A stretch of 64,000 nucleotides of DNA from Fibrobacter sp. (lineage in GTDB: Bacteria > Fibrobacterota > Fibrobacteria > Fibrobacterales > Fibrobacteraceae): contig NZ_JAFWOM010000175.1 of NCBI RefSeq assembly GCF_017545445.1, positions 1 through 64,000 of the forward strand, in the 5' to 3' direction. Every line of letters starts with the position of its first letter. The stretch's first letter is position 1. The notes below the pieces were generated by a model. It worked only from the letters and a program-made list of their open reading frames with translations, ran no database searches and had not been told where the DNA came from. Shown one piece after another: positions 30,703-44,592 of the stretch. The position numbers were made by a program, and so were the translations under genes.

Positions 30703-31323
30703 ATGGACTTGGAAAATGTGTCGAAGAATGCCCTTGGAGTGCCGAATTCGTATACGGTATTGCTGCGCGATGTTGCTTGGCTTTCGGTTGGCTACCCTTT
30801 TCGTAATACATGTATTCCCGGCGATTCGGGAATGTTGTCGTGTTTCTTGCGTGATGTTGACAACTCGGGCGAATTGCAATTGCAAAACTTAAAACGAGTA
30901 GAAGATGCGTCTCCTAACGATTCGCATTTAGCCACTCAGGGCGATGTCGTATTCCGCTCTCGTGGAACGCCGTTTATGGCGGCGGTTGTTCCCGAAATTA
31001 CTGAAAAGCTGTTGGTTGTCGCTCCGATGATCCGTATCCGTGTGAATCGCGAATTGGTTTCGCCCGATTACTTGGCGTGGTATATAAACGGGGCGTATGG
31101 TGCGGTCTATTTTAAGGAGTTTGCGACGGGCTCCGGCATTCCGCTGGTGAGCAAGGGTGTTTTGGAGCAGATGCCTGTCAAGTTGCCCAGTTTAAAGGCG
31201 CAGCAGGCTATTGCCGACCTTGTAAAACTTGGCCGAAAAGAACAAGAAATCTTGACACAAATTGTCAAGCAAAAGAATTTAATTTTAGAAACGGAAATTT
31301 CAAAATATTTGGAGTCGCTATGA
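30703..31323 (+). CDS. hsdS: Half-size type I restriction specificity (S) subunit
   Basis: A 206-aa HsdS-like protein with one target-recognition domain (residues 1-~165) and one C-terminal helical segment (LPSLKAQQAIADLVKLGRKEQEIL, then ILETEISKYL). Full HsdS proteins have two of each, so this would act as a homodimer or be a remnant. Its stop overlaps the hsdM start by 4 bp (ATGA), so it is coupled to HsdM. The ATG at 30703 has no well-placed Shine-Dalgarno, consistent with a leaderless start. A second, full-length HsdS lies at 37087. Confidence 0.8.
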   Translation: MDLENVSKNALGVPNSYTVLLRDVAWLSVGYPFRNTCIPGDSGMLSCFLRDVDNSGELQLQNLKRVEDASPNDSHLATQGDVVFRSRGTPFMAAVVPEITEKLLVVAPMIRIRVNRELVSPDYLAWYINGAYGAVYFKEFATGSGIPLVSKGVLEQMPVKLPSLKAQQAIADLVKLGRKEQEILTQIVKQKNLILETEISKYLESL

Positions 31324-32888
31324 GTGAAGTAAAAAGCGAAAAAATCGAGCAAGATGCCATCAATGCTGCCGCTTGGGCCGCATGTGATACTTTCCGCGGG
31401 GCGGTTGATCCGGCGCAGTACAAGGACTACATTCTGGTGATGCTGTTCCTGAAGTATATGTCGGATGTGTGGCACGACCATTACGACGCTTATGGCAAAC
31501 AGTATGGCGGCGACGAGGCGCGAATCCTCCGCAAGCTGGAACGCGAACGTTTTGTGCTTCCGAAGGTAGAAATCAAGAATGACAAGGGCAAGGTCATCGA
31601 CTCTTTTGTTGCAGACTATTACAGCCTTTACGAACGCCGCACGGCTGATAACATCGGCGACTTGATCAACATCGTTCTTGATAAGATTGAAACGCAGAAC
31701 AGGCTCAAGCTCGAAGGCGTTTTCCGCAATATTGACTTCAATTCCGAACCGAATTTGGGCAAGACGAAGGACCGCAACCGTCGCCTGCGTACGCTGCTCG
31801 AAGACTTCCACAAAGAAGAACTGGACATGTCGCCGAGCCGCGTTTCTGAAGATATCATCGGCAATACTTATATGTATCTGTTGGAACGTTTCGGTGCCGA
31901 AGCGGGCAAGAAGGCGGGTGAATTCTTTACGCCGTTCGATGTGACGGAACTCGTGGCGAAACTTGCCGCTCCGAAAGATGGCGATAAAATTTGTGACCCG
32001 ACATGCGGTGCGGGCGGCTTGTTGATTCAGGGCGCAAAGCAGGTGCCGAGCGGAAATTACGCTCTGTTTGGTCAGGAATCTAACGGCAGTACGTGGGCTC
32101 TTTGCCGTATGAACATGTTCTTGCACAGCACCGATAGCGCTCGCATTGAATGGGGCGATACGCTCAACAGCCCGATGCTTGTTGAAAAGGATAAGCTGAT
32201 GAAATTCAATGTTGTCGTCGCTAATCCACCGTTTAGCCTTGACAAATGGGGTGCCGAAAATGCTGCAAGCGACCCTTACAAGAGATTCTTCCGTGGCGTT
32301 CCGCCCAAGAGCAAGGGCGACTGGGCCTTCATCACGCACATGGTCGAGACGAGCCTCGCTGGCGAAGGTCGCATCGTTGTCGTGGTGCCGCACGGTGTGC
32401 TGTTCCGCAGTTCGACTGAAGGCAAAATTCGCGAGGCGATGATTCGCGAAAACCTGTTGGATGCGGTGATTGGACTCCCGGAAAATCTTTTCCCGACCAC
32501 GAGCATTCCCGTGGCGATTCTGGTATTCGACCGCAGTCGTGAAATCGGCGGCAAGAATGCAAAACGCAAGGACGTACTGTTCATTGACGCAAGCCGTGAA
32601 TTCGTGCAGGGCAAAAAGCAGAATTCGCTCTCCGAAGAGAATATCTCGAAGATCGTGAATACCTACAAGAAGCGTAAGAATGTGGACAAGTACGCCCATA
32701 TTGCCACCTTCGACGAAATTGAAGGTAACGAATTCAATCTGAACATCCCGCGCTACGTGGATACCTTCGAAGAAGAGGCTCCTATTGATGTGGATGCGGT
32801 GCAGAAGGATATCGACCGCCTTGAAAAGGAACTAGCCGAAGTCCGCAAGCAGATGGCGCAAAAGCTGAAGGAGATTAAGCGGGGGTAA
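31320..32888 (+). CDS. hsdM: Type I restriction-modification DNA adenine methyltransferase (M subunit)
   Basis: A 522-aa N6-adenine methyltransferase. An N-terminal helical domain (YILVMLFLKYMSDVW) precedes the catalytic domain with EFFTP (residues 201-205), SAM-binding DPTCGAGG (226-233) and catalytic NPPF (302-305). The C-terminus ends in a coiled coil (DIDRLEKELAEVRKQMAQKL) that packs with the S subunit. It modifies the target together with HsdS and protects host DNA from HsdR. GC content is like the host genome, unlike the genes that follow. Confidence 0.96.
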   Translation: MSEVKSEKIEQDAINAAAWAACDTFRGAVDPAQYKDYILVMLFLKYMSDVWHDHYDAYGKQYGGDEARILRKLERERFVLPKVEIKNDKGKVIDSFVADYYSLYERRTADNIGDLINIVLDKIETQNRLKLEGVFRNIDFNSEPNLGKTKDRNRRLRTLLEDFHKEELDMSPSRVSEDIIGNTYMYLLERFGAEAGKKAGEFFTPFDVTELVAKLAAPKDGDKICDPTCGAGGLLIQGAKQVPSGNYALFGQESNGSTWALCRMNMFLHSTDSARIEWGDTLNSPMLVEKDKLMKFNVVVANPPFSLDKWGAENAASDPYKRFFRGVPPKSKGDWAFITHMVETSLAGEGRIVVVVPHGVLFRSSTEGKIREAMIRENLLDAVIGLPENLFPTTSIPVAILVFDRSREIGGKNAKRKDVLFIDASREFVQGKKQNSLSEENISKIVNTYKKRKNVDKYAHIATFDEIEGNEFNLNIPRYVDTFEEEAPIDVDAVQKDIDRLEKELAEVRKQMAQKLKEIKRG

Positions 32889-32937
32889 AGAACCATGTCG
32901 CTCGCATGGGCGAGATGGTCGAATAAAGGATGATTTG

Positions 32938-34170
32938 ATGACACAGGAAGAACTCAAAAAACTGATTTCCAAAGACGAGACGAAGAATGTCGAGTTAAAG
33001 AAATCTACCGGAGAACTTCGCGAAGGCATGCATACGGCATGTGCCTTTTTGAATTCCGATGGCGGAGTTCTCGTTTTCGGTGTCACACCCTCTTTGAACA
33101 TTGTCGGTCAGATTGTTTCGGAATCCACCCGACGCGATATCGCGCAGGCCCTAGCGGGGATTGAGCCCGCAGTTTCGCCCGTCATTGAATATGTAGATAT
33201 TCCCGGCAAGCCGAACCTCCAGGTAATTGTGTTGAGGTTTAACCCGTGGGTCTATGGACAAAAGCCATATACATTCCACGGGAAACCGTATTATAGGTTG
33301 GAAAGCGTCACCAAGGTGATGCCTAGGGATATGTACGACGAAAGACTGCGGCAGAATTTCCCACACCAATTTTCGTGGGAAATGCGTGTAGCAGATAAGA
33401 TCACTATAGGCGATTTGGATGAAAAGAAAATTCGCGGCTTGGTTCGCCTCGGAGTCGAAGAGCGGAGAATCTCAGAGGAATCACTTTCCGAACCAATTGA
33501 AGTCGTTTTGGAAAAATGGGGCTCGGGTGTCAAGCGGATTATTGATGTTTGTAAGGAAGAAGGATCTCCAGAACCTTTTTGGACTGAAGAGGCCGGCTAT
33601 ACTGTGGTAACGTTCCCGCTGGCTAGATTAAATGGCAGGAATGTCACTCAAAATGTCACCCAAAATGTCGCTCAAAAAGATGATGACGTACCTAGAAGGC
33701 AGAAGGTGGAACAGGTCATTTCTGCAAACTCCATAATATCGACAGATGCTTTAGCAACAATGTTTGGAGTAACGAAAAGAACTATTTTGCGCGATTTGAA
33801 AGACCTTGGATATGTTTGGGAAGGAGCCGCTAAAAACGGACACTGGAAAACCCGAAATGTCGCTCAAAATGTAACCCAAAATGTCACCCAAAATGTCATC
33901 CAAAATGTCACTCAAGACATAGAAGACGGCCCTAGAGTGCAGAAGGTTGAACAGATTATCTTAGTAGATTCGATGAAAACAAAAGAGTATTTGGCGAAGA
34001 TGTTTGGAGTAAGTACTAGGACAATTTTACGTGACCTCAAGAAGCTTGGCTACGCTTGGGAAGGGGCATCAAAAAATGGGCACTGGGTGCGCGAGAAAGG
34101 ACGTTTTGTTGACGCCAACAAGACATCGGTTAATAAGATTGAAAAGGAAATGAAGAGGATTGGGAAGTAA
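32938..34170 (+). CDS. AlbA/Schlafen-type DNA-binding protein with duplicated HTH and missing central part
   Basis: A 410-aa protein starting at ATG 32938 (AAGGA upstream). Residues 1-~130 form an AlbA_2/Schlafen domain (NVELKKSTGELREGMHTACA, GGVLVFGVTP). The C-terminal end of the usual HATPase_c_4 region follows at once (KWGSGVKRIIDVCKEEGSPEP), so the central ~150-200 residues normal in this family are absent. Two copies of a module follow: NVTQ repeats (three, then five units), then a DeoR-like HTH (TDALATMFGVTKRTILRDLK and KEYLAKMFGVSTRTILRDLK), then GHW. It probably regulates the island. Confidence 0.8.
   Translation: MTQEELKKLISKDETKNVELKKSTGELREGMHTACAFLNSDGGVLVFGVTPSLNIVGQIVSESTRRDIAQALAGIEPAVSPVIEYVDIPGKPNLQVIVLRFNPWVYGQKPYTFHGKPYYRLESVTKVMPRDMYDERLRQNFPHQFSWEMRVADKITIGDLDEKKIRGLVRLGVEERRISEESLSEPIEVVLEKWGSGVKRIIDVCKEEGSPEPFWTEEAGYTVVTFPLARLNGRNVTQNVTQNVAQKDDDVPRRQKVEQVISANSIISTDALATMFGVTKRTILRDLKDLGYVWEGAAKNGHWKTRNVAQNVTQNVTQNVIQNVTQDIEDGPRVQKVEQIILVDSMKTKEYLAKMFGVSTRTILRDLKKLGYAWEGASKNGHWVREKGRFVDANKTSVNKIEKEMKRIGK
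33639..33672 (+). repeat. 12-bp in-frame tandem repeat encoding NVTQ, block 1
   Basis: About three tandem units of AATGTCACTCAA-like sequence in the AlbA/Schlafen-type gene, before its first HTH. Confidence 0.85.
33858..33915 (+). repeat. 12-bp in-frame tandem repeat encoding NVTQ, block 2
   Basis: Five tandem units (NVAQ, NVTQ, NVTQ, NVIQ, NVTQ) before the second HTH. The repeat unit keeps frame, so unit number can vary without truncation. Confidence 0.85.
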
Positions 34171-34252
34171 ACCATTTTCGTGAGGTCACGTAAAAGCTTA
34201 CAATAGAGAATAATAGTATGTATTTGCACACGGTTAGAAAAAGAGACTTTTG

Positions 34253-34290
34253 CATTTTTAAACGTAGCGGATTCGATACGTTTAAAAATG
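34253..34290. promoter_or_regulatory. Perfect 14-bp inverted repeat upstream of the orphan toxin gene
   Basis: CATTTTTAAACGTA (34253-34266) and its exact complement TACGTTTAAAAATG (34277-34290), with a 10-nt centre. It lies 20 nt before the TTG start of the next gene. No T-run follows, so an operator or mRNA hairpin is likelier than a terminator. Confidence 0.7.
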
Positions 34291-34309
34291 TTGGCAATCG
34301 GAGATCGTA

Positions 34310-34846
34310 TTGGTAAAGAAGCCGAAGACAAAAAGGAGCTCGCAGGAACGCAGAATGGCGAAGTTGGACGCTTCGCTTAAGTCGGCCTACGAACTTGCCG
34401 CAAAAAATTTGGCTTTGATGAAATTCCCTGAAGAGGCTTGGATATGCGTAAATGGAGTGCAACTTTCGGAAACACGAAAAATACAATCTGAAAAGAGCAA
34501 GAATGCGAAGGACGTACTTGAAAAAGAAATGGAAATTGCATCGATGTTAGTTGCTGCGGGGCATTTTGTTTGGATGCTGCCAGAAAACAGGGCTAATGCC
34601 AAGAACCCTGACGCAATTATAGATGGACTGATATATGATTTTAAACAAGTTAAACTTTCAAAAGTGGAACAACGCTTTGTAGAGGCTCTTAAGCAAGCGG
34701 ACAATGTGGTTCCGAGATTGCTCGACGAAAAGAATGTTTCTCGTGTATTGGGCAAATTGAAAAAACATGCTAAAAGCAAGAAAAACGGAACCCTTTTCGT
34801 GATTGTTGGCTCGGATGTAAGGAGGTTTGATTTTGACGAGATATAA
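34310..34846 (+). CDS. Orphan CdiA-CT-like (PD-(D/E)xK-type) toxin domain protein
   Basis: A 178-aa protein from TTG 34310, or 163 aa from ATG 34355, which has AGGA 7 nt upstream. After a basic N-terminus comes EKEMEIASMLVAAGHFVWML, then NPDAIIDGLIYDFKQVKLS, and the end is GTLFVIVGSDVRRFDF. The layout Glu...Pro-Asp-Ala...Asp-Phe-Lys matches the nuclease core of C-terminal tRNase domains of CdiA-like toxins (PF18451-type), here without any secretion part. It lies within the RM island. Function as a toxin or as a house-keeping nuclease is inferred. Confidence 0.62.
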   Translation: MVKKPKTKRSSQERRMAKLDASLKSAYELAAKNLALMKFPEEAWICVNGVQLSETRKIQSEKSKNAKDVLEKEMEIASMLVAAGHFVWMLPENRANAKNPDAIIDGLIYDFKQVKLSKVEQRFVEALKQADNVVPRLLDEKNVSRVLGKLKKHAKSKKNGTLFVIVGSDVRRFDFDEI

Positions 34847-35084
34847 AAAAATCCACGTTTTTTTGGCACAAAAACGTGGAAAACCCTGGCTGCCCGAGCA
34901 TATAGCCCCGGCAAAGTTCATTGCTGAACTTAGTTATAATATACAATATTTTTTTGCGGAAGTCAATGGCTTTATTAGGACATTGCTTGAAATACGGAAA
35001 TATGGCGAAAAAAGAAAAATTCAACCCTGTTCACTAGAATGTCGTTAGAGTGATAAACTACATTGAATTACATGAGGACGAAAT
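34847..35084. other. Spacer between toxin-like gene and KAP gene, with a 10-bp hairpin
   Basis: CCACGTTTTT (34853-34862) pairs perfectly with AAAAACGTGG (34870-34879). A 71-73-aa open frame (TTG 34827 or 34833 to 35048) starts just after AAGGAGG and overlaps the toxin-like gene's end. It could be an immunity gene, but its start codon is weak and its composition unremarkable, so it is not called. Confidence 0.5.
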
Positions 35085-37100
35085 ATGTCAAACAGCAACA
35101 AGCACATTGAAGAATTCCTGGACTACTACCTGAATGTGGAGCAGTCTCCCGATTATGCTGTGTTGATTACAGGCTGTTGGGGCTCTGGCAAGACATATTT
35201 TATTAGACAGTATCTAGAAGGCAGGGGTGCTGCCGGAAAGGATGTAGTCAAAACATTTGACTGGTTGACCGATTGCGAAAAATATGCAGTTGTATATGTT
35301 AGCCTATTCGGTGCTAAAAGTCGCGAAGAAATGGACAAGCGAGTTCTTGAAAAACTGCATCCAATATTAAATTCAGATTATCTAAAAAGCATACCGACTG
35401 CCGTATCGACAATTGCCAAATTGCTAAAAGAGTATTCTGTTAATCCCGCTTTAAAAGCTACGGGTGCAGTAGCCGAAATCGCGACTCCTTTTTTAGCGGA
35501 AGTCTTGCCGAATATTATAAAAGGTGAAGGAGAGAAATTAAAAGGCGCTGTTGTCGTTTTTGATGATGTTGAGCGTGCTGACATGCTACTTCCTGAATTG
35601 TTGGGATATTTGAACGAATATGTGGAACACCTGCATGTTCCCTGCATTTTGCTTGCGGATAAGGAAAAATGGGAAGAAGCACAAAAGTGTCAAGAAGACA
35701 AATCAACTCTTCATCATTTGTCTAGTACCAAGGAAAAAGTCATTGGTAAGGAATTCCAGATACAAACATCTTTTGATGAAGTTTGGAATTTATGGTTTAA
35801 TAAAGAAAAGCATCTTCTTGGTGATAAAGCATGGCGTTTATTGAAAGATTGTCATGATATAATCGCTCAAGTATTTGAATTGTCAAATGCCTCAAATTAT
35901 CGTTCTTTAAGGCATACTTTTTTTGATTTTCAACTGTTCATAGAAAATATACAGGATGAGTATTTGATCAATCCTGAATTTAATTCACTATTTATCGCTG
36001 ATTTCTTTGCACATCAATATGCTTATTATTTAGGTTGGTTTAAAGCGTCTGAATATGCGGAAAGTAATGCTATCCAAAGAGGTTGCGCGAAGGCCTCTGT
36101 CGAAAATAGAAATCACCGATTAGCTCAAGATGAGTCTGTTGATGAAGAATTGTATAAAAAATACCCAAAACTTCCGTATGAAAAATTCGAAGAAATATTT
36201 GACAAGGTCAAACGCTTAAGTTCATATGCTTTTTTAGATGACTATTATGCAAAATGGCGGCAGATTTGGCAAGAATGGTTTTCAAAAAATTATGTTGAAG
36301 CTGAACACCTCAATAATGTTATCAAAAATTCAATATGGTATGATAAAAAAGATGATTATTACCTAAATAAAATGTATGAATGGTTTAGAGAGGACGATGA
36401 TTCTGGCCCAAAGGCTATGGCTGCGCTTGAAAAAGCGCTGCGAGAAAAGAAACTGACTAGTCCTATATCAATTATGTGCTTGTTCAGCAAACTTTATTGG
36501 CTTGCGCAAAGAAGAGTTTTTGTTGAGGACTATAATGCATTTTGTAAGAAAATAGAAGACTATGTTGTTGCGTGCAAGGGTATTTTGGAGTATGAAGATG
36601 TAGATAAATGGACACAACACACAATGTTGGATTCATCTTATAGTGATGTCAAAAAAGAATTAGATCATCTACAAGAACTCCTTAAGGAAATCTTGGCAGA
36701 AAAAGCGGCATCATTCAAACAGAACAAAATGGATGAGTTTTTTGAAAATCTTGGAAATGAAAATCCAGTTGTTTCCGAGCAAACTTGTGGTACGATTATA
36801 AATGGCTATCTGGATGAAAAAAAATTTGTATTTGGTGATTTGAATGCGGAACGTTTCTGTGAAGCCTATAGAAAAATGCCCTCGCGAGTTAAAACGAATT
36901 GTTTTAATGCGTTGAAGTCTAGATATCAATATCATCCTGAACAGATTGAAAGGGAAAAGAATTTTTTGGAAAAACTTTTGAAAAATGCTCAAAAGATATA
37001 TAATGATGCAAAACGTCCGTTGTTGCCAAGTGTGTTTGCGTTTGATTATTTAATTAGAACTTTGGAAAAAATTTTGGGAGAAAAGAATGATGCTACCTAA
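35085..37100 (+). CDS. KAP-type P-loop NTPase
   Basis: A 671-aa predicted ATPase. Walker A is GCWGSGKT (residues 30-37), Walker B is VVVFDDVER (156-164), and the C-terminal ~450 residues are helical and poorly conserved. The combination of an early P-loop and a D-D-[VIL]-E-R Walker B is typical of KAP NTPases, which often sit in phage-defence loci. No membrane segment is obvious, unlike many KAP proteins. It is AT-rich compared with hsdM and hsdR and overlaps the following hsdS by 14 bp. ATG 35085 lies behind GAGGA. Confidence 0.82.
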   Translation: MSNSNKHIEEFLDYYLNVEQSPDYAVLITGCWGSGKTYFIRQYLEGRGAAGKDVVKTFDWLTDCEKYAVVYVSLFGAKSREEMDKRVLEKLHPILNSDYLKSIPTAVSTIAKLLKEYSVNPALKATGAVAEIATPFLAEVLPNIIKGEGEKLKGAVVVFDDVERADMLLPELLGYLNEYVEHLHVPCILLADKEKWEEAQKCQEDKSTLHHLSSTKEKVIGKEFQIQTSFDEVWNLWFNKEKHLLGDKAWRLLKDCHDIIAQVFELSNASNYRSLRHTFFDFQLFIENIQDEYLINPEFNSLFIADFFAHQYAYYLGWFKASEYAESNAIQRGCAKASVENRNHRLAQDESVDEELYKKYPKLPYEKFEEIFDKVKRLSSYAFLDDYYAKWRQIWQEWFSKNYVEAEHLNNVIKNSIWYDKKDDYYLNKMYEWFREDDDSGPKAMAALEKALREKKLTSPISIMCLFSKLYWLAQRRVFVEDYNAFCKKIEDYVVACKGILEYEDVDKWTQHTMLDSSYSDVKKELDHLQELLKEILAEKAASFKQNKMDEFFENLGNENPVVSEQTCGTIINGYLDEKKFVFGDLNAERFCEAYRKMPSRVKTNCFNALKSRYQYHPEQIEREKNFLEKLLKNAQKIYNDAKRPLLPSVFAFDYLIRTLEKILGEKNDAT

Positions 37101-38322
37101 TGGATGGAAAAAAGTAAAGATAAAAGATATTGAATCCGTGGACATTCAAAACGGATATTCTCCTTTGTGTGTTGATTATGAAACAAATCGAAAAACGTTG
37201 AGCCTTGGTGCTTTGACTGGTTTTTCGTTAGATGTGAGCCAACAAAAAAATATATCAGAAAATGCTGTGATGCCGATTCATTCCTTATTAAAGAGAAATG
37301 ATATATTGGTTAGCCGATCAAATACAAAAGATAAAGTTGGCCGTGCCGCTGTAGTATTTGATGATTTAAAGGGAATCTATTATCCAGATTTAATGATGCG
37401 TTTTCAAGTGAATGAAAAAATTGCTGATTGTCAATTTGTTGTGTTATGTTTGCAGTCTCCTGCAGGACGCCGTTATTTTGAATCATGTGCTGCTGGAACA
37501 AGCACAAGTATGGTGAAAATTAATAAAAATGTACTAGAATCTTTTCCGATAATGTTGCCCCCGCTAGAAGAGCAGAAGAAGATTGCGGCGACGCTTTCGG
37601 TCTGGGACTCCGCCATCGAAAAAATGGAAAAACTCATCGAAGCGAAGGAAGATCAGAAGAAATCTTTGATATGGAAATTGATTGAAAGTAATGACAACAG
37701 AAAAATTAAACTAGGTAAAGTTGTTGTAGATAAAAATAAGTGGAGAAAAAGCAAACTATCTGATGTAGCTTCGGGTTTTGATTATGGAATGAATGCTGCA
37801 GCAAAGGAATATGACGGGAAAAATAAATATATTCGAATAACAGATATTGATGATGTATCTCATAAGTTTAATTCTATAGATTTAGTCTCGCCAAATGCGG
37901 AACTAGAAGACAAATATCGGGTGAATGAAGGAGATATTCTTTTTGCTAGAACAGGTGCTAGCACGGGAAAATCGTATTTATATGATAAAAATGATGGCAT
38001 TTTATATTTTGCCGGATTTTTGATTCGAGTCCATGTATTAAAAGATAACCCTTTCTTTATTTACATTCAAACTCTTTCGTCAAAATATCAAAACTGGTTA
38101 AAAAAGATGTCGATGAGATCGGGGCAGCCTGGTGTTAATGCGGAAGAATATAAAAACTTGCCAGTTTTAGTTCCGACTCTTCCAGAGCAAAACGCAATTA
38201 CTGAAGTTCTTTCCGCTGCCGAAAAAGAACTCTCTCTACTCAAACAACAACTTGAAAATTATAAAAAGCAGAAACAAGGCTTGATGCAAAAACTCCTCAC
38301 CGGTGAGTGGCGAGTAAAATAA
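37087..38322 (+). CDS. hsdS: Type I restriction specificity subunit, full length
   Basis: A 411-aa HsdS with two target-recognition domains and two conserved helical spacers. The first TRD runs to about residue 145, ending in KINKNVLESFPIMLPPLEEQ. The first spacer is KKIAATLSVWDSAIEKME. The second TRD spans about 215-365 (SDVASGFDYGMNAAAKEY to LPVLVPTLPEQNAI). The terminal spacer is SAAEKELSLLKQQLENYKKQ with the usual LMQKLLTGEWRV ending. It directs HsdM/HsdR to a bipartite sequence. The TRDs are AT-rich and the spacers less so, as expected for domain shuffling. ATG 37087 or 37090. Confidence 0.94.
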   Translation: MMLPNGWKKVKIKDIESVDIQNGYSPLCVDYETNRKTLSLGALTGFSLDVSQQKNISENAVMPIHSLLKRNDILVSRSNTKDKVGRAAVVFDDLKGIYYPDLMMRFQVNEKIADCQFVVLCLQSPAGRRYFESCAAGTSTSMVKINKNVLESFPIMLPPLEEQKKIAATLSVWDSAIEKMEKLIEAKEDQKKSLIWKLIESNDNRKIKLGKVVVDKNKWRKSKLSDVASGFDYGMNAAAKEYDGKNKYIRITDIDDVSHKFNSIDLVSPNAELEDKYRVNEGDILFARTGASTGKSYLYDKNDGILYFAGFLIRVHVLKDNPFFIYIQTLSSKYQNWLKKMSMRSGQPGVNAEEYKNLPVLVPTLPEQNAITEVLSAAEKELSLLKQQLENYKKQKQGLMQKLLTGEWRVK

Positions 38323-38334
38323 AGGGAGGAAAAT

Positions 38335-40215
38335 ATGAAGATTACTCAGATTGAAATTGGTCGTTTAGATGAAAATGATCGCTTGAATTTGAATGAAAAA
38401 GTGAGAATGAACAATTTAAACAGCATTGTTGTTCTTGTTGGGGAGAATGGAGCGGGAAAGACTCGTCTTTTGCGAACCATTCTTAGCATTCAGGAAAAGC
38501 AGAATGAATATCGTAAAAAAAGAGATGCTCTATTAAAGGAAATAGATGAAAAGATAGGAAATTATTTTCTTACTTATGACGAGGAAGAGAATAAAGAGAT
38601 AAAAGAAATGGAAAATGAAACGGAGTGGATTGGTCATTTAAAATTAGATGGTTTAGACAAGAGTAATTATCCTAATATAATTTCATTTGTTCCATCAACA
38701 TCAAAGTTGAAAGATTGGAGAGATTTTTCAAAAAAAGCATGGATGAAAAAAGCAGTAGAGTGCGAACGTTTGAATATAGATGCACTTGCAGAAGGAACAA
38801 CTTCGTTTATTCAAAAATTATCAGATCAATCTCGGGAAGCCGAATTTCACTTAATGCAAAAAAAAGAAAAAGAAGATTCTACTAAAATAAATGAGTATAA
38901 CAAGCGAAAAGGCCTTTATACAAAATTTTCCAAATTGGTGAAAGATAATTTGAAATTAACACTAGACCGCAATGAAAATGGCGATGCTGTGCTGCTTGAT
39001 GAAAAAGGAAATGGCGATGTAATTGCTGAAGCAAAGTTATCCGAAGGTCAACAATTGTTGTTGCAAATGTGCGTTCAATTATATGCTAAAGACGCTCAGT
39101 CTGATGATTATATTTTGTTATTAGATGAACCTGAAGTACATCTTCATCCGTCTGCAGTTATTCAATTTGTTGAAGATGTGAAAAGAAAAAATAAAAATGG
39201 GCAAATATGGATTGCAACACATTCTTTGGCTTTGGCTTCGCATTTTGATCCTGATGATATATGGTATGTCTCTGGAGGTGAAGTTGAAAAAGCTGGAAGA
39301 AAGTCAGAGAGAATATTGAAAGGGCTTATAGGAAATGAAGAAGATATAGAAAAATTGAGGCAATTCACAGATTTGCCTTTTCAATTTGGAGTTACAAGAT
39401 TTTCGACGCAATGTTTGTTGCCTCCCACTGTTGTTGAAACAGGAGCTAAAGATCCTCAGTTTCAACAAATAAAAGAAATCTTTAAAATTCAGCAATCACA
39501 GGGAGGAAAAATCAAGCTTCTTGATTATGGCGCAGGTAAGGGACGGTTGATATCGTCTTTTGCCGAGGATGGATCTAATTCAAAAGAAATATTAGATTAT
39601 TACGCTTATGATAAGTCTGTTGAAAACAAAGAATGTTGTATTGGTAATATAAAGAAATTTCATAATGAAGATGCAGAATTAAGATATTATAGCGAAATAT
39701 CAAGTTTGGATAAAAATTCATTTGACATTGTTTTAATGTGTAATGTATTGCATGAAATAGATTGCAAATATTGGAAAAGTATTTTTGAAGATATCAGTAA
39801 AATTTTAAAAAAAGATGGATTTTTATTGTTTGTCGAAGACAATATTATTCCAATCGGTGAACTGCCAAATAGGATTGGCTTTCTTGTTTTGAATACACTG
39901 CAATTGAATGAACTCTTTCAAACAAAAATATTATTGGACGATATAAGAGATTATCATGATTACGATATGAGTAACCGGTATAAAAAAGGGCGATTAATGG
40001 CTCATTTGATTTCTGCAAATGTATTGAAAAATGTTACGGAAACATCAATAAAGAATGCTATAAAATCTTTAAAAGAAATGTCTAAAGTAAAATTGTATGA
40101 ATGTAGGGATCATGCAATAAGTGAAAGTGATGACAGTACATGTAAAGATGGCTTAGAATATGGTTTCTGGTTAAATCAATATGCAAATGCCTCCCTTTGT
40201 TTAGATAATTTGTGA
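38335..40215 (+). CDS. Fusion of an ABC/OLD-like ATPase with a C-terminal SAM-dependent methyltransferase
   Basis: A 626-aa protein in two parts. Residues 1-~345 form an AAA_21/OLD-like ATPase: Walker A GENGAGKT (36-43), an insert with coiled coil, signature LSEGQ (235-239), Walker B LLLDEPEVHLHP (261-272) and H-loop ATHS (294-297). Residues ~370-626 form a class I methyltransferase: motif I LLDYGAGKG (395-403), acidic motif II YAYDKS (423-428), FDIVLMCNVLHEI (463-475) and DGFLLFVEDN (494-503). In OLD proteins a TOPRIM nuclease occupies this position. The gene lies 12 nt after hsdS and is AT-rich. Function unknown; defence is likely from context. Confidence 0.85.
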   Translation: MKITQIEIGRLDENDRLNLNEKVRMNNLNSIVVLVGENGAGKTRLLRTILSIQEKQNEYRKKRDALLKEIDEKIGNYFLTYDEEENKEIKEMENETEWIGHLKLDGLDKSNYPNIISFVPSTSKLKDWRDFSKKAWMKKAVECERLNIDALAEGTTSFIQKLSDQSREAEFHLMQKKEKEDSTKINEYNKRKGLYTKFSKLVKDNLKLTLDRNENGDAVLLDEKGNGDVIAEAKLSEGQQLLLQMCVQLYAKDAQSDDYILLLDEPEVHLHPSAVIQFVEDVKRKNKNGQIWIATHSLALASHFDPDDIWYVSGGEVEKAGRKSERILKGLIGNEEDIEKLRQFTDLPFQFGVTRFSTQCLLPPTVVETGAKDPQFQQIKEIFKIQQSQGGKIKLLDYGAGKGRLISSFAEDGSNSKEILDYYAYDKSVENKECCIGNIKKFHNEDAELRYYSEISSLDKNSFDIVLMCNVLHEIDCKYWKSIFEDISKILKKDGFLLFVEDNIIPIGELPNRIGFLVLNTLQLNELFQTKILLDDIRDYHDYDMSNRYKKGRLMAHLISANVLKNVTETSIKNAIKSLKEMSKVKLYECRDHAISESDDSTCKDGLEYGFWLNQYANASLCLDNL

Positions 40216-40256
40216 TAATAAAAATATCTAAGGTCATAAGAGTTTGAGGTGATTTT

Positions 40257-40361
40257 ATGTCAAAGTCCCGAAAGGTAACCCCAGTTTCCATTCGCAGTTC
40301 GGCTGCGGAGAGTTCAGTTATTAAGAAATACTTAATAGTTCAAAAAATTTTTGCTACCTAA
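40257..40361 (+). pseudogene. 5' remnant of a RhuM/Fic-associated gene
   Basis: A 34-codon frame with a good ribosome-binding site (GAGGTG, 6 nt before ATG). It starts MSKSRKVTPVSIRSSAAE, which matches the usual beginning of RhuM-type virulence proteins (T-P-x-x-I-R-S-S-A-A-E-Y-L). The match then stops and the frame ends after 16 unrelated codons. RhuM genes are frequent neighbours of type I RM genes, which supports the reading. I recognise it by memory of the family, not by alignment. Confidence 0.45.
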
Positions 40362-40378
40362 AAAAGGATAGAGCTGAT

Positions 40379-40680
40379 ATGGATGAAAAAGAGTTACGGA
40401 AAATTATTCGTCAGGGCAAAATGTGGGGACAATTTGTCATCCCCCTTTACGTCGCAACGGCTGGAGAAAATCAAATGTATAAATTTCCAATTTTGCTCCG
40501 GTCACAAAATGAGACCGGTTTTACATACTGAATTTTTCAGGATCACAAAGGTGATAAAAATGGCGGATTAAATGGCAGATTATTTGGCTGATTATTTGGC
40601 ACGTTAAAAGGCACATTAAGCGACACATTAAATGGCAGATTAAAATACTTTGAGGTAATTTATGAGCAACGAACAACAGC
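40379..40680 (+). pseudogene. Collapsed AlbA/Schlafen-type gene remnant with NGRL repeats
   Basis: ATG 40379 follows AAAAGGATAG. The first codons, MDEKELRKIIRQG, resemble the start of AlbA_2 proteins. The frame stops at 40531. In the same frame further on, after the first stop, the 12-bp repeat region (40559-40642) would encode NGGLNGRLFG-stop-LFGTLKGTLSDTLNGRL. That is the repeat tail typical of Schlafen-like ATP-binding proteins, with a second stop inside. Start and tail in one frame without a core suggest a large internal deletion plus nonsense mutations. It runs into the hsdR start. Confidence 0.42.
40559..40642. repeat. Seven imperfect 12-bp tandem repeats just upstream of hsdR
   Basis: Units resemble AATGGCAGATTA (84 bp in total). 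They occupy the space before the hsdR ribosome-binding site (TTTGAGGTAA) and look like the coding remnant of an NGRL tail. Confidence 0.85.
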
Positions 40681-43600
40681 CTGATTACAGAGAAATTCCG
40701 ACATCGCAGATTCCGGCGATGCGGTTATTGGCGAATCTCGGGTTTAAGCCGCTTACACCCGAAGAGGTGATGCTGGAGCGCAAGGGTAAGCTTGCCAACG
40801 TGTTGCTCGAAGATATTCTGCTTTCGCAGTTGCGTAAACTGAACTCGTTTACGCACAAGGGGACCAAGTGTGATTTTAGCGAAGAAAGCTTGCGTGGTGC
40901 TGTATTAAAACTGAAGAACATGCAGTATGATGGCTTGGTGCGTACGAATTACAAGATTTACGACTTGCTCACGCTCCCGCAATCCGAAGAAGAGTCGGTT
41001 GAGGGCGACAAGCGCAGTTACGACATCCGCTATGTTGATTGGCAAGAACCGGCGAACAATGTGTTCCATGCTGTTGCCGAATTCGATGTGGAGTGTGCGA
41101 AATCTAATGCCCGCATCATTCCAGATATTGTGCTGTTTGTGAACGGGATTCCATTTGCGGTTATTGAAAATAAATCGCCCGAAGAAGGTGTCAAACAAGG
41201 TATTTCGCAGATGATTCGCAACCAAGGGGATGATTATATTCCTCGGTTGTTTACTTTTTGCCAAATGCTTTTGTCTGTCAGCATGAATGATGCGACTTAT
41301 GCCACTGTTGGGACTCCCGAAAAGTTCTGGAGCCTTTGGCACGAGCTAGAAATCAAGGACAAGGAAATCGAAGCTGCGATTAACAAAAAGGTTCCGGCTG
41401 AAGATGAAGACCGAATATTCTCGGTGCCGAAATTCAAGTCGTTCCGCAAGGATAATCCGCAGACAAAGCGTGTGGTGACGGAACAGGATAGATTGATTTA
41501 TTGCCTGTGCAAGCCGGAGCGATTGCTTGAAATGGCTTATCGTTTTATTCTGTTTGATGAAGGTATAAAGAAAATAGCTCGTTATCAGCAGTTCTTTGTG
41601 GTCCATTCGGCGTTGAAACGCATTCGGAACATTGATAACGAAGGCAAGCGTAAAGGTGGACTTGTGTGGCATACGCAGGGGTCGGGCAAGTCGCTTTCGA
41701 TGGTGATGCTTGCTCGCGGAATTGCTCTGGATTCAAAGTATGATCCCGATTGCAATATTGATAATGCGCGTATCGTTCTTGTCACAGACCGCAAGGATTT
41801 GGATACGCAGATTCATGATACGTTCAAACATTGCGGAATGGAAGTCATCAAGGCAACTTCAGGTGAAAACCTGCTTAATCTTATGGCTTCTGATACTCCA
41901 GCCGTCATCACGACTGTTATTAACAAGTTCGACAAGGCTTTGAATAAGCGGCAATATGTTGAAAAATCCAACAATATCTTTTTGCTTGTCGATGAGGCAC
42001 ACCGCACGCAGTATAAAAATCTGCATGCACGCATGAAACAGATGCTCCCGAATGCCTGCTATATCGGCTTTACGGGAACGCCGCTGATGAAAAAAGAGAA
42101 GAATAGCTTCGGTAAGTTCGGCGGGATGATTAAGCCTTGCTATACAATTCAGCAAGCAAATGAAGATGGTGCCGTGGTTCCCTTGCTCTATGAGGGTCGT
42201 CATGCAGAACTCAAGCAGGACAAGGCGGCGATAGATCTTTGGTTTGATCGTTTTACTGCGGGGCTTTCGAACAAGCAGAAAGCTGACCTTAAGAAAAAAT
42301 ATGCCCGAGCCGAGATGCTGAACAAGGCAGAACGCGTCGTTTATATGCGTGCGTTTGATATTAGCGAGCATTTCCGTACAAACTGGCAGGGGACTCCGTT
42401 CAAGGCACAACTTGTCGCACCGAGCAAGGAAACTGCTATTCTGTACCATGAATTCTTGGATGAAATTGGTTCCGTGAGTTCGGAGGTTATTATTTCGGGC
42501 CCCGATGAGCGCGAAGGTTATTCGGAAGTGGGTGAAGAACCGAGCGACCGCGTGACGAAATTCTGGAAAAAAATGATGGATCACTATGGTGATGAGGAGG
42601 AATACAATAGGTCTATTATTGAAAGTTTCAAGGGTTCGGGTAAACCGGAAATCTTGATTGTATGTGATAAGTTGCTGACGGGCTTTGATGCTGAACGCAA
42701 CACTGTTCTGTACCTTTGCCGCACGCTCAAGGAACATACGTTGTTGCAGGCGATTGCCCGTGTGAACCGTTTGTTCGAGGAAAATGGCAAGAAAAAAGAT
42801 TTCGGCTATATCGTAGATTACGCTAACGTTCGCGACAACCTAGATACGGCGCTTGTGATGTACAAGGCACTGGAAGGCTTTGACCCCGAAGATTTGGAAG
42901 GCTTGCTGACCGATGTGTCGGAACTAGTGGGCAAGTTGCCGCAGTTGCGCTCTAATTTGTGGGATGTTTTCAGGGGTGTCAAGAACAAGGCTGACCCCGA
43001 ACAGATGGAACGCCACTTGGCCGATGAAAAACGCCGTAACGATTTCTACAAGGCCCTGCGAGATTTCGGAAAGTGCCTGAGTATCGCGATGTCATCGCAG
43101 AAGTTCCTGGAAAAGACTCCTGCCGAAGATATGATGCGGCTCCGCAGGGAGTTCAAGATGTTCTCGGATATGCGTGTGTCTGTAAAGCACCGCTACGCTG
43201 ACGATGTGGACTACAGCGAGTACGAACCGAAAATCAAGAAGTTGCTCGATACGCACATCCAGTCGGATAATGTGGTACAGACTGTGGCTCCTGTGAATAT
43301 TTTGGATCCGAAGTTTACGAAGAAACTGAGTGATGACAAGCGTGGTTACGATGCTCGTGGTAAGGCGGCGAGTGCGGATTCGATTGCGCATGCTCTCAAG
43401 AAAACCGTGACGGAAAAGATGGAAGAAGACCCGGCATTCTACGAGAAATTCTCGAAGATGATTCAGGATGTCATTGATAGTTTCCAGGCGGGTAAAATTT
43501 CTGAGGACGAATATTATTCCAAGGTTCAGAACTTGCAAGAAAAATTCAAAAGCAAGCGACGTGACGATGTGCCCGAGGAAATTAGCGAGAATGAGGATGC

Positions 43601-43895
43601 CGCAGCTTTTTATGGTGTCGCTTTATCTGCCTTTGTGTATTGCGGAAAATGCGATGCGGCGGAAGCTAGGCGAATCGCCGCAAAAATGGCTTTGTTTACG
43701 GTTGAGTCGTTTGAGAAACATCGTAAAATTCAGTTCTGGAATGATACGGATGCACAGAATCGTGTAAAGAACGAACTGGATGACTTTTTGTTTGATGAAA
43801 TTCAGGTGCGGGAACGCTTTGAATGGTCAAATAATGATATTGATACGCTTGAAGATAAGATTATGAATGTGGCAAGGCGGCGTTCGCATGAATGA
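40662..43895 (+). CDS. hsdR: Type I restriction endonuclease R subunit
   Basis: A 1077-aa ATP-dependent translocase and nuclease. The N-terminal PD-(D/E)xK nuclease has Pro-Asp (154-155) in PDIVLFVNG and E-N-K (169-171). The helicase motor has Walker A HTQGSGKS (337-344), the DEAH box LLVDEAHRTQY (DEAH 444-447), YIGFTGTPL and AIARVNRLFE. A C-terminal helical domain binds HsdM. ATG 40662 lies behind GAGGTAA. The gene is intact, so the restriction system could be active. Its 3' end overlaps the metallopeptidase gene by 8 bp. Confidence 0.96.
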   Translation: MSNEQQPDYREIPTSQIPAMRLLANLGFKPLTPEEVMLERKGKLANVLLEDILLSQLRKLNSFTHKGTKCDFSEESLRGAVLKLKNMQYDGLVRTNYKIYDLLTLPQSEEESVEGDKRSYDIRYVDWQEPANNVFHAVAEFDVECAKSNARIIPDIVLFVNGIPFAVIENKSPEEGVKQGISQMIRNQGDDYIPRLFTFCQMLLSVSMNDATYATVGTPEKFWSLWHELEIKDKEIEAAINKKVPAEDEDRIFSVPKFKSFRKDNPQTKRVVTEQDRLIYCLCKPERLLEMAYRFILFDEGIKKIARYQQFFVVHSALKRIRNIDNEGKRKGGLVWHTQGSGKSLSMVMLARGIALDSKYDPDCNIDNARIVLVTDRKDLDTQIHDTFKHCGMEVIKATSGENLLNLMASDTPAVITTVINKFDKALNKRQYVEKSNNIFLLVDEAHRTQYKNLHARMKQMLPNACYIGFTGTPLMKKEKNSFGKFGGMIKPCYTIQQANEDGAVVPLLYEGRHAELKQDKAAIDLWFDRFTAGLSNKQKADLKKKYARAEMLNKAERVVYMRAFDISEHFRTNWQGTPFKAQLVAPSKETAILYHEFLDEIGSVSSEVIISGPDEREGYSEVGEEPSDRVTKFWKKMMDHYGDEEEYNRSIIESFKGSGKPEILIVCDKLLTGFDAERNTVLYLCRTLKEHTLLQAIARVNRLFEENGKKKDFGYIVDYANVRDNLDTALVMYKALEGFDPEDLEGLLTDVSELVGKLPQLRSNLWDVFRGVKNKADPEQMERHLADEKRRNDFYKALRDFGKCLSIAMSSQKFLEKTPAEDMMRLRREFKMFSDMRVSVKHRYADDVDYSEYEPKIKKLLDTHIQSDNVVQTVAPVNILDPKFTKKLSDDKRGYDARGKAASADSIAHALKKTVTEKMEEDPAFYEKFSKMIQDVIDSFQAGKISEDEYYSKVQNLQEKFKSKRRDDVPEEISENEDAAAFYGVALSAFVYCGKCDAAEARRIAAKMALFTVESFEKHRKIQFWNDTDAQNRVKNELDDFLFDEIQVRERFEWSNNDIDTLEDKIMNVARRRSHE

Positions 43896-44592
43896 GTTGG
43901 GCGTTGTTAAATATGGAGACCGCGAGATTGCATACGCGGTTGAATTTTGCTGCCGCAAAACGCTGGAAATTTCTGTAATGCCGGATAGTGCCGTGCAGGT
44001 GCGGGCTCCGCAAGGGGCAACGCTCGAAGCGATTGCGCAGAAGGTGCAAAAGAAAGCTCCTTGGATTGTTGAAAAGCAGGACTGGTTTGCGAGATTCCCT
44101 AAAGCGCCACCTCCAAGGCAATATCTTGGTGGCGAAACGCATTTGTATATGGGGCGGCGTTACCGCTTGAAAATTGAAAAAGGTACAGAACGCTTGGTGA
44201 AAATCGATGGCGGGTTCATTAGAGTTGTTTCTGCGGATGTTCGCCCCGCAACTGTGAAGAAGTTTCTTGACGAATGGTTGCGTGAACGAGCTAAGGTGCA
44301 GTTTGAAAAAATATTTGATGCGTGTATCGCCAAGTTTTCTTTGCCGTCATCTTCACTTCGGTTGCAAATCCGCAATATGCAGACGCGCTGGGGTTCACTC
44401 TCTAAAGGTGGCATATTGACCTTGAACATAAAACTGATTGCTGTCCCGAAGGAATGTATCGAGTATGTCGTGGTACATGAACTGTGTCACCTGAAATACC
44501 CGAATCATGATAAAAGGTTCTATCGACTGTTAGAAACACGATTGCCTGATTGGGAAAAGCGAAAATTGAAACTGGAGAACTTGCAGATGTAG
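43888..44592 (+). CDS. YgjP/SprT-like zinc metallopeptidase (DUF45)
   Basis: A 234-aa protein of the YgjP-type M48-like metallopeptidase family. The zinc motif is VVHELCHLKYPNHDKRFY (HExxH plus a downstream His). The block SLRLQIRNMQTRWGSLSKGG is the usual family signature. ATG 43888 overlaps the hsdR stop by 8 bp (ATGAATGA), so the gene is the last one of the hsd transcript. Such genes are frequent companions of type I RM genes; their role there is not established. Confidence 0.9.
   Translation: MNELGVVKYGDREIAYAVEFCCRKTLEISVMPDSAVQVRAPQGATLEAIAQKVQKKAPWIVEKQDWFARFPKAPPPRQYLGGETHLYMGRRYRLKIEKGTERLVKIDGGFIRVVSADVRPATVKKFLDEWLRERAKVQFEKIFDACIAKFSLPSSSLRLQIRNMQTRWGSLSKGGILTLNIKLIAVPKECIEYVVVHELCHLKYPNHDKRFYRLLETRLPDWEKRKLKLENLQM

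What the first reader, a model, noticed from the sequence alone, without database searches (positions are those of the whole stretch)
38335..40215. ABC/OLD-like ATPase fused to a SAM methyltransferase inside a type I RM operon
One 626-aa frame has a full ABC-type ATPase (Walker A GENGAGKT, LSEGQ, LLLDEPEVHLHP, ATHS) followed by a complete-looking class I methyltransferase (LLDYGAGKG, YAYDKS, FDIVLMCNVLHEI). In OLD-type defence ATPases a TOPRIM nuclease sits at this place. A modifying instead of a cutting effector, encoded 12 nt after hsdS, suggests an ATPase-gated modification of DNA, RNA, protein or a small molecule as anti-phage response. I know no described system with this architecture.
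Basis: partly seen in the sequence, partly recalled or inferred. Interest (0 to 1): 0.85.

Follow-up and report, generated by a model that had tools for sequence, protein, structure and literature searches.

The report
ATPase-methyltransferase fusion, a probable phage defence
A bacterial gene in a swappable defence slot of a DNA-restriction operon joins a phage-defence-type ATPase to a methyltransferase; the same fusion is conserved in at least seven bacterial phyla and in prophages, so it probably defends against phages by modifying a target rather than cutting it, which is untested.

Summary
Window 38335-40215 is one intact 626-aa frame, 12 nt after hsdS and before hsdR. Residues 1-335 are an OLD/PtuA-like ABC ATPase (closest solved folds: Septu and retron PtuA, Z about 17). 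Residues about 360-565 are a class I SAM methyltransferase fold (Z about 13-14), with C-terminal helices.

It is not a one-off. All 34 clear relatives from one genome scan carry both halves in one frame. They span Bacteroidota, Pseudomonadota, Myxococcota, Bacillota, Planctomycetota and Verrucomicrobiota. ATPase and methyltransferase motifs are invariant or nearly so across 32 aligned proteins.

The restriction operon is not its obligate partner: most copies are solo genes, some beside phage tail genes. In Fibrobacter the gap between hsdS and hsdR is an exchangeable cargo slot: sister operons with up to 95% identical HsdR carry PARIS (AriAB), YhcG nuclease, RhuM or Schlafen/AlbA genes there.

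Best reading: a single-gene, ATPase-gated methyltransferase effector of anti-phage defence, probably acting on RNA, protein or a small molecule (no DNA-methyltransferase signature). Defence is inferred; the substrate is unknown. New variant of a known kind (OLD-ABC ATPase plus effector), with a modifying rather than nuclease effector.

The parts
38335..40215 (+). ATPase-methyltransferase fusion gene, 626 aa
   Evidence: Open frame, Pfam, conservation, structure
38335..39339 (+). OLD/PtuA-like ABC ATPase half (residues 1-335)
   Evidence: AAA_21 E 3e-18; PtuA Z 17.5
38440..38463 (+). Walker A GENGAGKT (residues 36-43)
   Evidence: G36, N38, G39, G41, K42 invariant in 32 members
38515..38934 (+). 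Least conserved part of the ATPase (residues 61-200), candidate sensor region
   Evidence: Conservation profile; sensing is inferred
39037..39051 (+). ABC signature LSEGQ (residues 235-239)
   Evidence: L235, S236, G238 invariant
39115..39150 (+). Walker B LLLDEPEVHLHP (residues 261-272)
   Evidence: D264, E265, E267, H269, H271 invariant
39214..39225 (+). ATHS switch (residues 294-297)
   Evidence: T295, H296, S297 invariant
39355..39474 (+). Conserved linker between the halves (residues 341-380)
   Evidence: As conserved as the domains
39412..40029 (+). Class I SAM methyltransferase fold (residues about 360-565)
   Evidence: Pfam, AlphaFold2 and fold matches
39517..39546 (+). Methyltransferase motif I LLDYGAGKGR (residues 395-404)
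   Evidence: A400, G401, R404 invariant
39742..39759 (+). NVLHEI (residues 470-475), position of motif IV; not a DNA-methyltransferase DPPY motif
39832..39861 (+). VEDNIIPIGE (residues 500-509), near-invariant block after strand 5
   Evidence: E501, D502, G508, E509 invariant
40030..40212 (+). C-terminal helices (residues 566-626)
   Evidence: Secondary structure of the model; N618 invariant
37087..38322 (+). hsdS, 12 nt upstream
   Evidence: Methylase_S E 2e-29
40662..43895 (+). hsdR, downstream border of the cargo slot
   Evidence: HSDR_N, SWI2_SNF2; 89-95% identical in sister genomes with other cargo
31320..32888 (+). hsdM
   Evidence: N6_Mtase E 1e-98
32935..34170 (+). Schlafen/AlbA_2 plus HTH gene, cargo of the hsdM-hsdS slot
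35085..37100 (+). KAP NTPase (PADLOC PDC-S49), cargo of the hsdM-hsdS slot

Best explanation
It is a single-gene, probably anti-phage, sensor-effector protein. A PtuA-like OLD/ABC ATPase (shown by fold and motifs) likely oligomerises and senses infection, most plausibly through its variable region at residues 61-200 (inferred). ATP binding or hydrolysis then switches on the C-terminal SAM methyltransferase (inferred). The methyltransferase modifies a target that is probably RNA (such as tRNA), a protein or a small molecule rather than DNA bases, stopping phage growth or the cell's own growth (inferred). In this genome it is cargo in an exchangeable slot of a type I RM operon, where it may serve as a back-up when phages block restriction, as PARIS does (inferred from slot sharing). 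In most other genomes it works alone.
For: Both halves always occur in one frame: 34 of 34 clear relatives from the genome scan; three of these lack the N-terminus at contig ends but keep the Walker B region. Invariant ATPase and methyltransferase residues and a conserved linker. The halves co-diverge: r 0.79, none of 2000 permutations reached it. PtuA is the best fold match of the ATPase; the best PADLOC profiles are AriA and PtuA. The C-terminal half is a class I methyltransferase. The hsdS-hsdR slot carries fused AriAB (PARIS) in four sister operons and YhcG/PDC-S02, RhuM/PDC-S05 or AlbA_2 genes in others, although HsdR is 89-95% identical in the nearest. Prophage positions beside tail genes in L021/L063 and L040; L062 has a tail protein on its contig. 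A second RM linkage in a Bacillota genome, L056. dN/dS 0.30 against L023, synonymous sites near saturation.
Against: No phage or biochemical data exist. Many solo copies sit among ordinary genes (GlnRS, Hsp70, H+-PPase, TonB receptors). Only scattered neighbours of the solo copies match defence profiles, and no control set of loci was run. The relative orientation of the two domains is not resolved (pTM 0.54), so gating is not modelled. No relatives in the plasmid or named-phage collections. An OLD-family protein with a non-defence role is known (Cran1, PMC12796447).
Confidence: 0.6

Rival explanations
1. The methyltransferase fold is a SAM sensor or self-modifying switch rather than the effector: it watches SAM (which restriction needs and some phages destroy) or methylates its own ATPase, and the ATPase does the harm or recruits another protein.
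For: SAM-binding motif conserved in all members; type I RM neighbours need SAM. Other ABC-type defence ATPases need partner effectors.
Against: Residues beyond SAM binding (NVLHE, W480, E501-D502, G508-E509, R553) are also invariant, as expected for a substrate pocket. Most copies have no RM neighbour and no recurring partner.
Confidence: 0.13
2. A non-defence function: a mobile or accessory enzyme that modifies a metabolite or takes part in the cell cycle, with the ATPase as a structural or regulatory part.
For: Many solo copies lie among housekeeping genes; Cran1 shows that OLD-family ATPases can have cell-cycle roles (PMC12796447); fold matches include many small-molecule methyltransferases.
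Against: Patchy distribution (2 of 101 related genomes), prophage positions, and the place of PARIS and other defence genes taken in RM operons.
Confidence: 0.17
3. A third modification arm of the RM system: the fusion methylates DNA bases, of host or phage, together with HsdM/HsdS.
For: Placed 12 nt after hsdS in the window and likewise in G050.
Against: No [DNS]PP[YFW] or PC catalytic motif in 32 members; most copies are not near hsd genes; sister operons lack it while keeping hsdM, hsdS and hsdR.
Confidence: 0.06

Closest known systems
Septu PtuA/PtuB and PtuA of retrons Ec78, Ec83, Eco7
   Same: Nearest solved ATPase folds (Foldseek top hits; Z 16-17.5); PADLOC PtuA E 4e-20.
   Different: The effector is a covalently fused methyltransferase, not a separate HNH nuclease PtuB; single gene. 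NCBIfam PtuA score 44 against a cut-off of 500.
PARIS (AriA/AriB, including fused AriAB)
   Same: OLD-ABC ATPase with a C-terminal effector in one chain; fused AriAB takes the same operon slot in four sister genomes.
   Different: DUF4435/TOPRIM nuclease replaced by a methyltransferase; ATPase fold less close (Z 14.5).
OLD nucleases and GajA (Gabija)
   Same: OLD-type ABC ATPase in the N-terminal half, effector in the C-terminal half.
   Different: No TOPRIM domain; Pfam and fold show a methyltransferase instead.
Defence genes embedded in RM and other immune operons (Payne et al. 2024, cited in PMC11411939; TgvAB inside a type I RM operon, PMC11411939)
   Same: Accessory gene placed between type I RM core genes and exchangeable between relatives.
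   Different: No PADLOC family among the 25 listed matches covers both domains; most copies are not embedded.
OLD-ABC ATPases paired with TOPRIM, HNH, PD-(D/E)XK or PIN nucleases around BREX (PMC12839542)
   Same: OLD-ABC ATPase with interchangeable effectors, read there as a back-up layer.
   Different: All pairings listed there are nucleases; here the effector is a methyltransferase.

Membership tests
Septu | PtuA-like ATPase fold | tested here: met
   Z 17.5, rmsd 3.7 over 282 residues to Ec83 PtuA; by sequence the NCBIfam PtuA equivalog cut-off is not reached
Septu | PtuB HNH nuclease partner gene | tested here: not met
   In the window the flanking genes are hsdS and hsdR; in relatives no neighbour of any kind recurs
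OLD nuclease / Gabija GajA | C-terminal TOPRIM nuclease domain | tested here: not met
   C-terminal half is a class I methyltransferase by Pfam and fold
PARIS | AriB DUF4435/TOPRIM effector, fused or adjacent | tested here: not met
   No such domain or neighbour in the window; true AriAB found in sister operons
Class I SAM methyltransferase | Rossmann methyltransferase fold with motif I | tested here: met
Class I SAM methyltransferase | SAM binding and methyl transfer | not testable with these tools
   Needs purified protein
DNA methyltransferase of RM systems | Catalytic [DNS]PP[YFW] or PC motif | tested here: not met
   0 of 32 members
Embedded accessory gene of a type I RM operon | Located between hsd genes and replaced by other genes in close relatives | tested here: met
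Anti-phage defence system | Protects cells from phages | not testable with these tools

The most novel reading that the evidence does not exclude
A distinct family of single-gene bacterial immune proteins in which an OLD/PtuA-type ATPase gates methylation of a cellular or phage target (tRNA, translation factor or metabolite), giving a first non-nucleolytic effector of the OLD-ABC defence class, with sensor and effector halves that can recombine.
Probability: 0.5. Interest if true: 0.82.

Novelty: new variant of a known kind. Interest (0 to 1): 0.7.

Why it matters
The OLD-ABC defence ATPases described in the literature I could read act through nucleases, several of which cut tRNA or DNA. A conserved family with a methyltransferase in the same place suggests that methylation can also serve as an immune effector. 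It gives ready test genes, many of them solo and small enough for a plasmid. The RM slot comparison also shows how one restriction operon exchanges second-line defence modules between close relatives.

Tried and rejected
A first genome-contig scan used uninformative peptide patterns and found nothing; it was repeated with a core methyltransferase alignment. Plasmid and named-phage collections gave no match with four different queries. The viral structure library gave no convincing full-length fusion among the 50 matches listed, mostly single domains. A conserved partner gene: rejected, neighbours are diverse. tRNA-gene integration sites: tRNA genes in only five of 29 loci, no consistent pattern. 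L022, L057-L060, L064 and L065 are short free-standing methyltransferases with marginal similarity, not members. Literature: no paper found in the held library that describes this architecture. The main survey of ABC ATPases in conflict systems (Krishnan et al. 2020) is not held, and no bioRxiv library is held for the Payne preprint, so prior mention there cannot be excluded. The whole genome was not available as a file.

Full report
WHAT IS THERE. Window 38335-40215 (+) is one open frame of 626 aa, 12 nt after hsdS (37087-38322) and 446 nt before hsdR (40662-43895). Pfam places AAA_21 (E 3e-18), AAA_15 and ABC_tran in the N-terminal half and Methyltransf_23/11/12/31/25 at residues 390-502. 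HsdM, HsdS and HsdR are bona fide, so the operon is type I RM.

IT IS A FAMILY. Within 101 related genomes, one other (G050) has the whole fusion at 44% identity, again between hsdS and hsdR. A scan of viral contigs gave a full-length member on a phage contig. A genome-contig scan with a three-sequence alignment of the methyltransferase core gave 38 relatives. L023-L056 (34) all carry the ATPase in the same frame; three are cut at their 5' end by the contig but keep the Walker B region. The other four are short, weakly similar methyltransferases. Members lie in Bacteroidota, Pseudomonadota, Myxococcota, Bacillota, Planctomycetota and Verrucomicrobiota (titles; tree), besides the window's own phylum. 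Pattern scans miss divergent members, so counts are lower bounds.

CONSERVATION. In 32 full-length proteins, Walker A, the LSxGQ signature, Walker B, the ATHS switch, methyltransferase motif I, NVLHE, W480, E501-D502, G508-E509, R553 and N618 are invariant or nearly so. The linker at residues 341-380 is as conserved as the domains, while residues 61-200 of the ATPase are the least conserved. Distances of the two halves correlate (r 0.79; none of 2000 permutations reached it), consistent with long joint descent. dN/dS between window and L023 is 0.30 (ATPase 0.40, methyltransferase 0.22), with synonymous sites near saturation; the difference between halves must be read with the mosaic described below.

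STRUCTURE. The C-terminal half alone is modelled at pLDDT 85, pTM 0.83. It matches many class I methyltransferases at Z 13-14 over 150-190 residues, among them METTL6, polyketide C-methyltransferases and small-molecule enzymes, so the substrate cannot be read from the fold. The full-length model has pLDDT 82 but pTM 0.54: the domains are sound, their arrangement is not. Its ATPase matches PtuA of Septu and retrons best (Z 17.5), then AriA (14.5), then SMC heads (about 13). No member carries a DNA aminomethyltransferase [DNS]PP[YFW] or a PC motif.

CONTEXT. The gene is solo in most genomes: no neighbour family recurs, and neighbours range from housekeeping genes to defence-type genes such as nSTAND3 (L051), YhcG/PDC-S02 (L025), and PD-T4-6/mad6-like and dCTPase-like proteins (L042). 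No control set was run, so enrichment near defence genes is not claimed. L021/L063 and L040 sit just after phage tail genes, and L062 has a tail protein on its contig. L056, from a Bacillota genome, lies directly after an hsdM-like, a RhuM-like, an HsdS-like and an hsdR-like gene and has C-terminal TPR-like repeats, as has L055 (the RhuM, HsdS and TPR labels of these two loci are my reading of the sequence).

THE SLOT. HsdR relatives at 89-95% identity were found in seven sister genomes, plus one partial copy at 90%, and at 42-76% in others. Thirteen operons were compared. The order short HsdS - HsdM - cargo - HsdS - cargo - HsdR - YgjP is kept wherever the contig or stretch covers it. Cargo between hsdS and hsdR changes: fused AriAB (PARIS) in L088, L090, L091 and L096; YhcG/PDC-S02 in L089 and L092; RhuM/PDC-S05 in L092 and, by similarity, L097; AlbA_2-type genes in L086, L087, L093 and L098; nothing in L095; the fusion in the window and L098. 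Between hsdM and hsdS lie PsyrTA, KAP/PDC-S49 and AlbA genes. The fusion therefore takes the place of a proven class of defence ATPase-effector protein. PARIS responds to Ocr, an inhibitor of restriction (as summarised in PMC12839542), which makes a back-up role for the slot plausible.

MOSAIC. L023, a short rumen contig, joins an ATPase nearer to G050 (48%, against 40% to the window; 65% against 38% over the first 50 residues) to a methyltransferase nearer to the window (68% against 47%; 72-85% in the 50-residue steps from 321 to 515). The change lies near residue 320, the domain boundary. Its AlbA gene is 94% identical in DNA to that of G050 and its hsdR start 93% to that of the window. Recombination between slots, here at the domain border, is the simplest reading; it rests on one contig.

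INTERPRETATION. Shown: fusion, fold of both halves, conservation, wide distribution, slot exchange, some prophage positions. Inferred: defence, sensing by the ATPase, gating of the methyltransferase, non-DNA substrate. Most likely the ATPase detects infection and switches on methylation of an RNA, protein or metabolite target. The main rivals are a SAM-sensing role for the methyltransferase fold and a non-defence function. The RM operon is carrier, not obligate partner.

NOVELTY. OLD-ABC ATPases paired with TOPRIM, HNH, PD-(D/E)XK or PIN nucleases are described (PMC12839542), and accessory genes embedded in RM operons are known (PMC11411939, citing Payne et al. 2024). I found no description of a methyltransferase effector, but two key sources could not be read (Tried and rejected). 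Hence: new variant of a known kind.

Noticed in passing
window 30703-44592 and L086-L098: Fibrobacter-type type I RM operon with two cargo slots that exchange defence modules (fused PARIS, PsyrTA, YhcG, RhuM, AlbA_2, KAP NTPase) between close relatives.
   Followed up: partly
window 30703-31323: A 206-aa HsdS-like half protein overlaps hsdM by 4 nt and is kept in the sister operons wherever the stretch covers that end; its role (half-subunit, regulator) is unknown.
   Followed up: no
window 43867-44592: A YgjP-like metallopeptidase gene overlaps the end of hsdR by 29 nt and follows hsdR in all 13 operons compared.
   Followed up: no
L023 188-3118: Mosaic contig: ATPase half nearer to G050, methyltransferase half nearer to the window, breakpoint near the domain boundary. 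The record calls it an alphaproteobacterium, but the flanking genes look Fibrobacter-like, so it is probably misbinned.
   Followed up: partly
L055 8996-11521 and L056 9053-11071: Divergent fusions with C-terminal TPR-like repeats in Defluviitaleaceae (Bacillota); L056 lies directly after a type I RM operon with a RhuM-like gene.
   Followed up: partly
L097 5819-8108: A PtuA/AriA-like ATPase gene followed by a small DUF4145-like protein gene in the hsdM-hsdS slot; possibly another two-gene ATPase system.
   Followed up: partly
window 34171-35084: A 914-nt stretch between the AlbA_2 gene and the KAP gene without a clear gene (only short or TTG-start frames).
   Followed up: no
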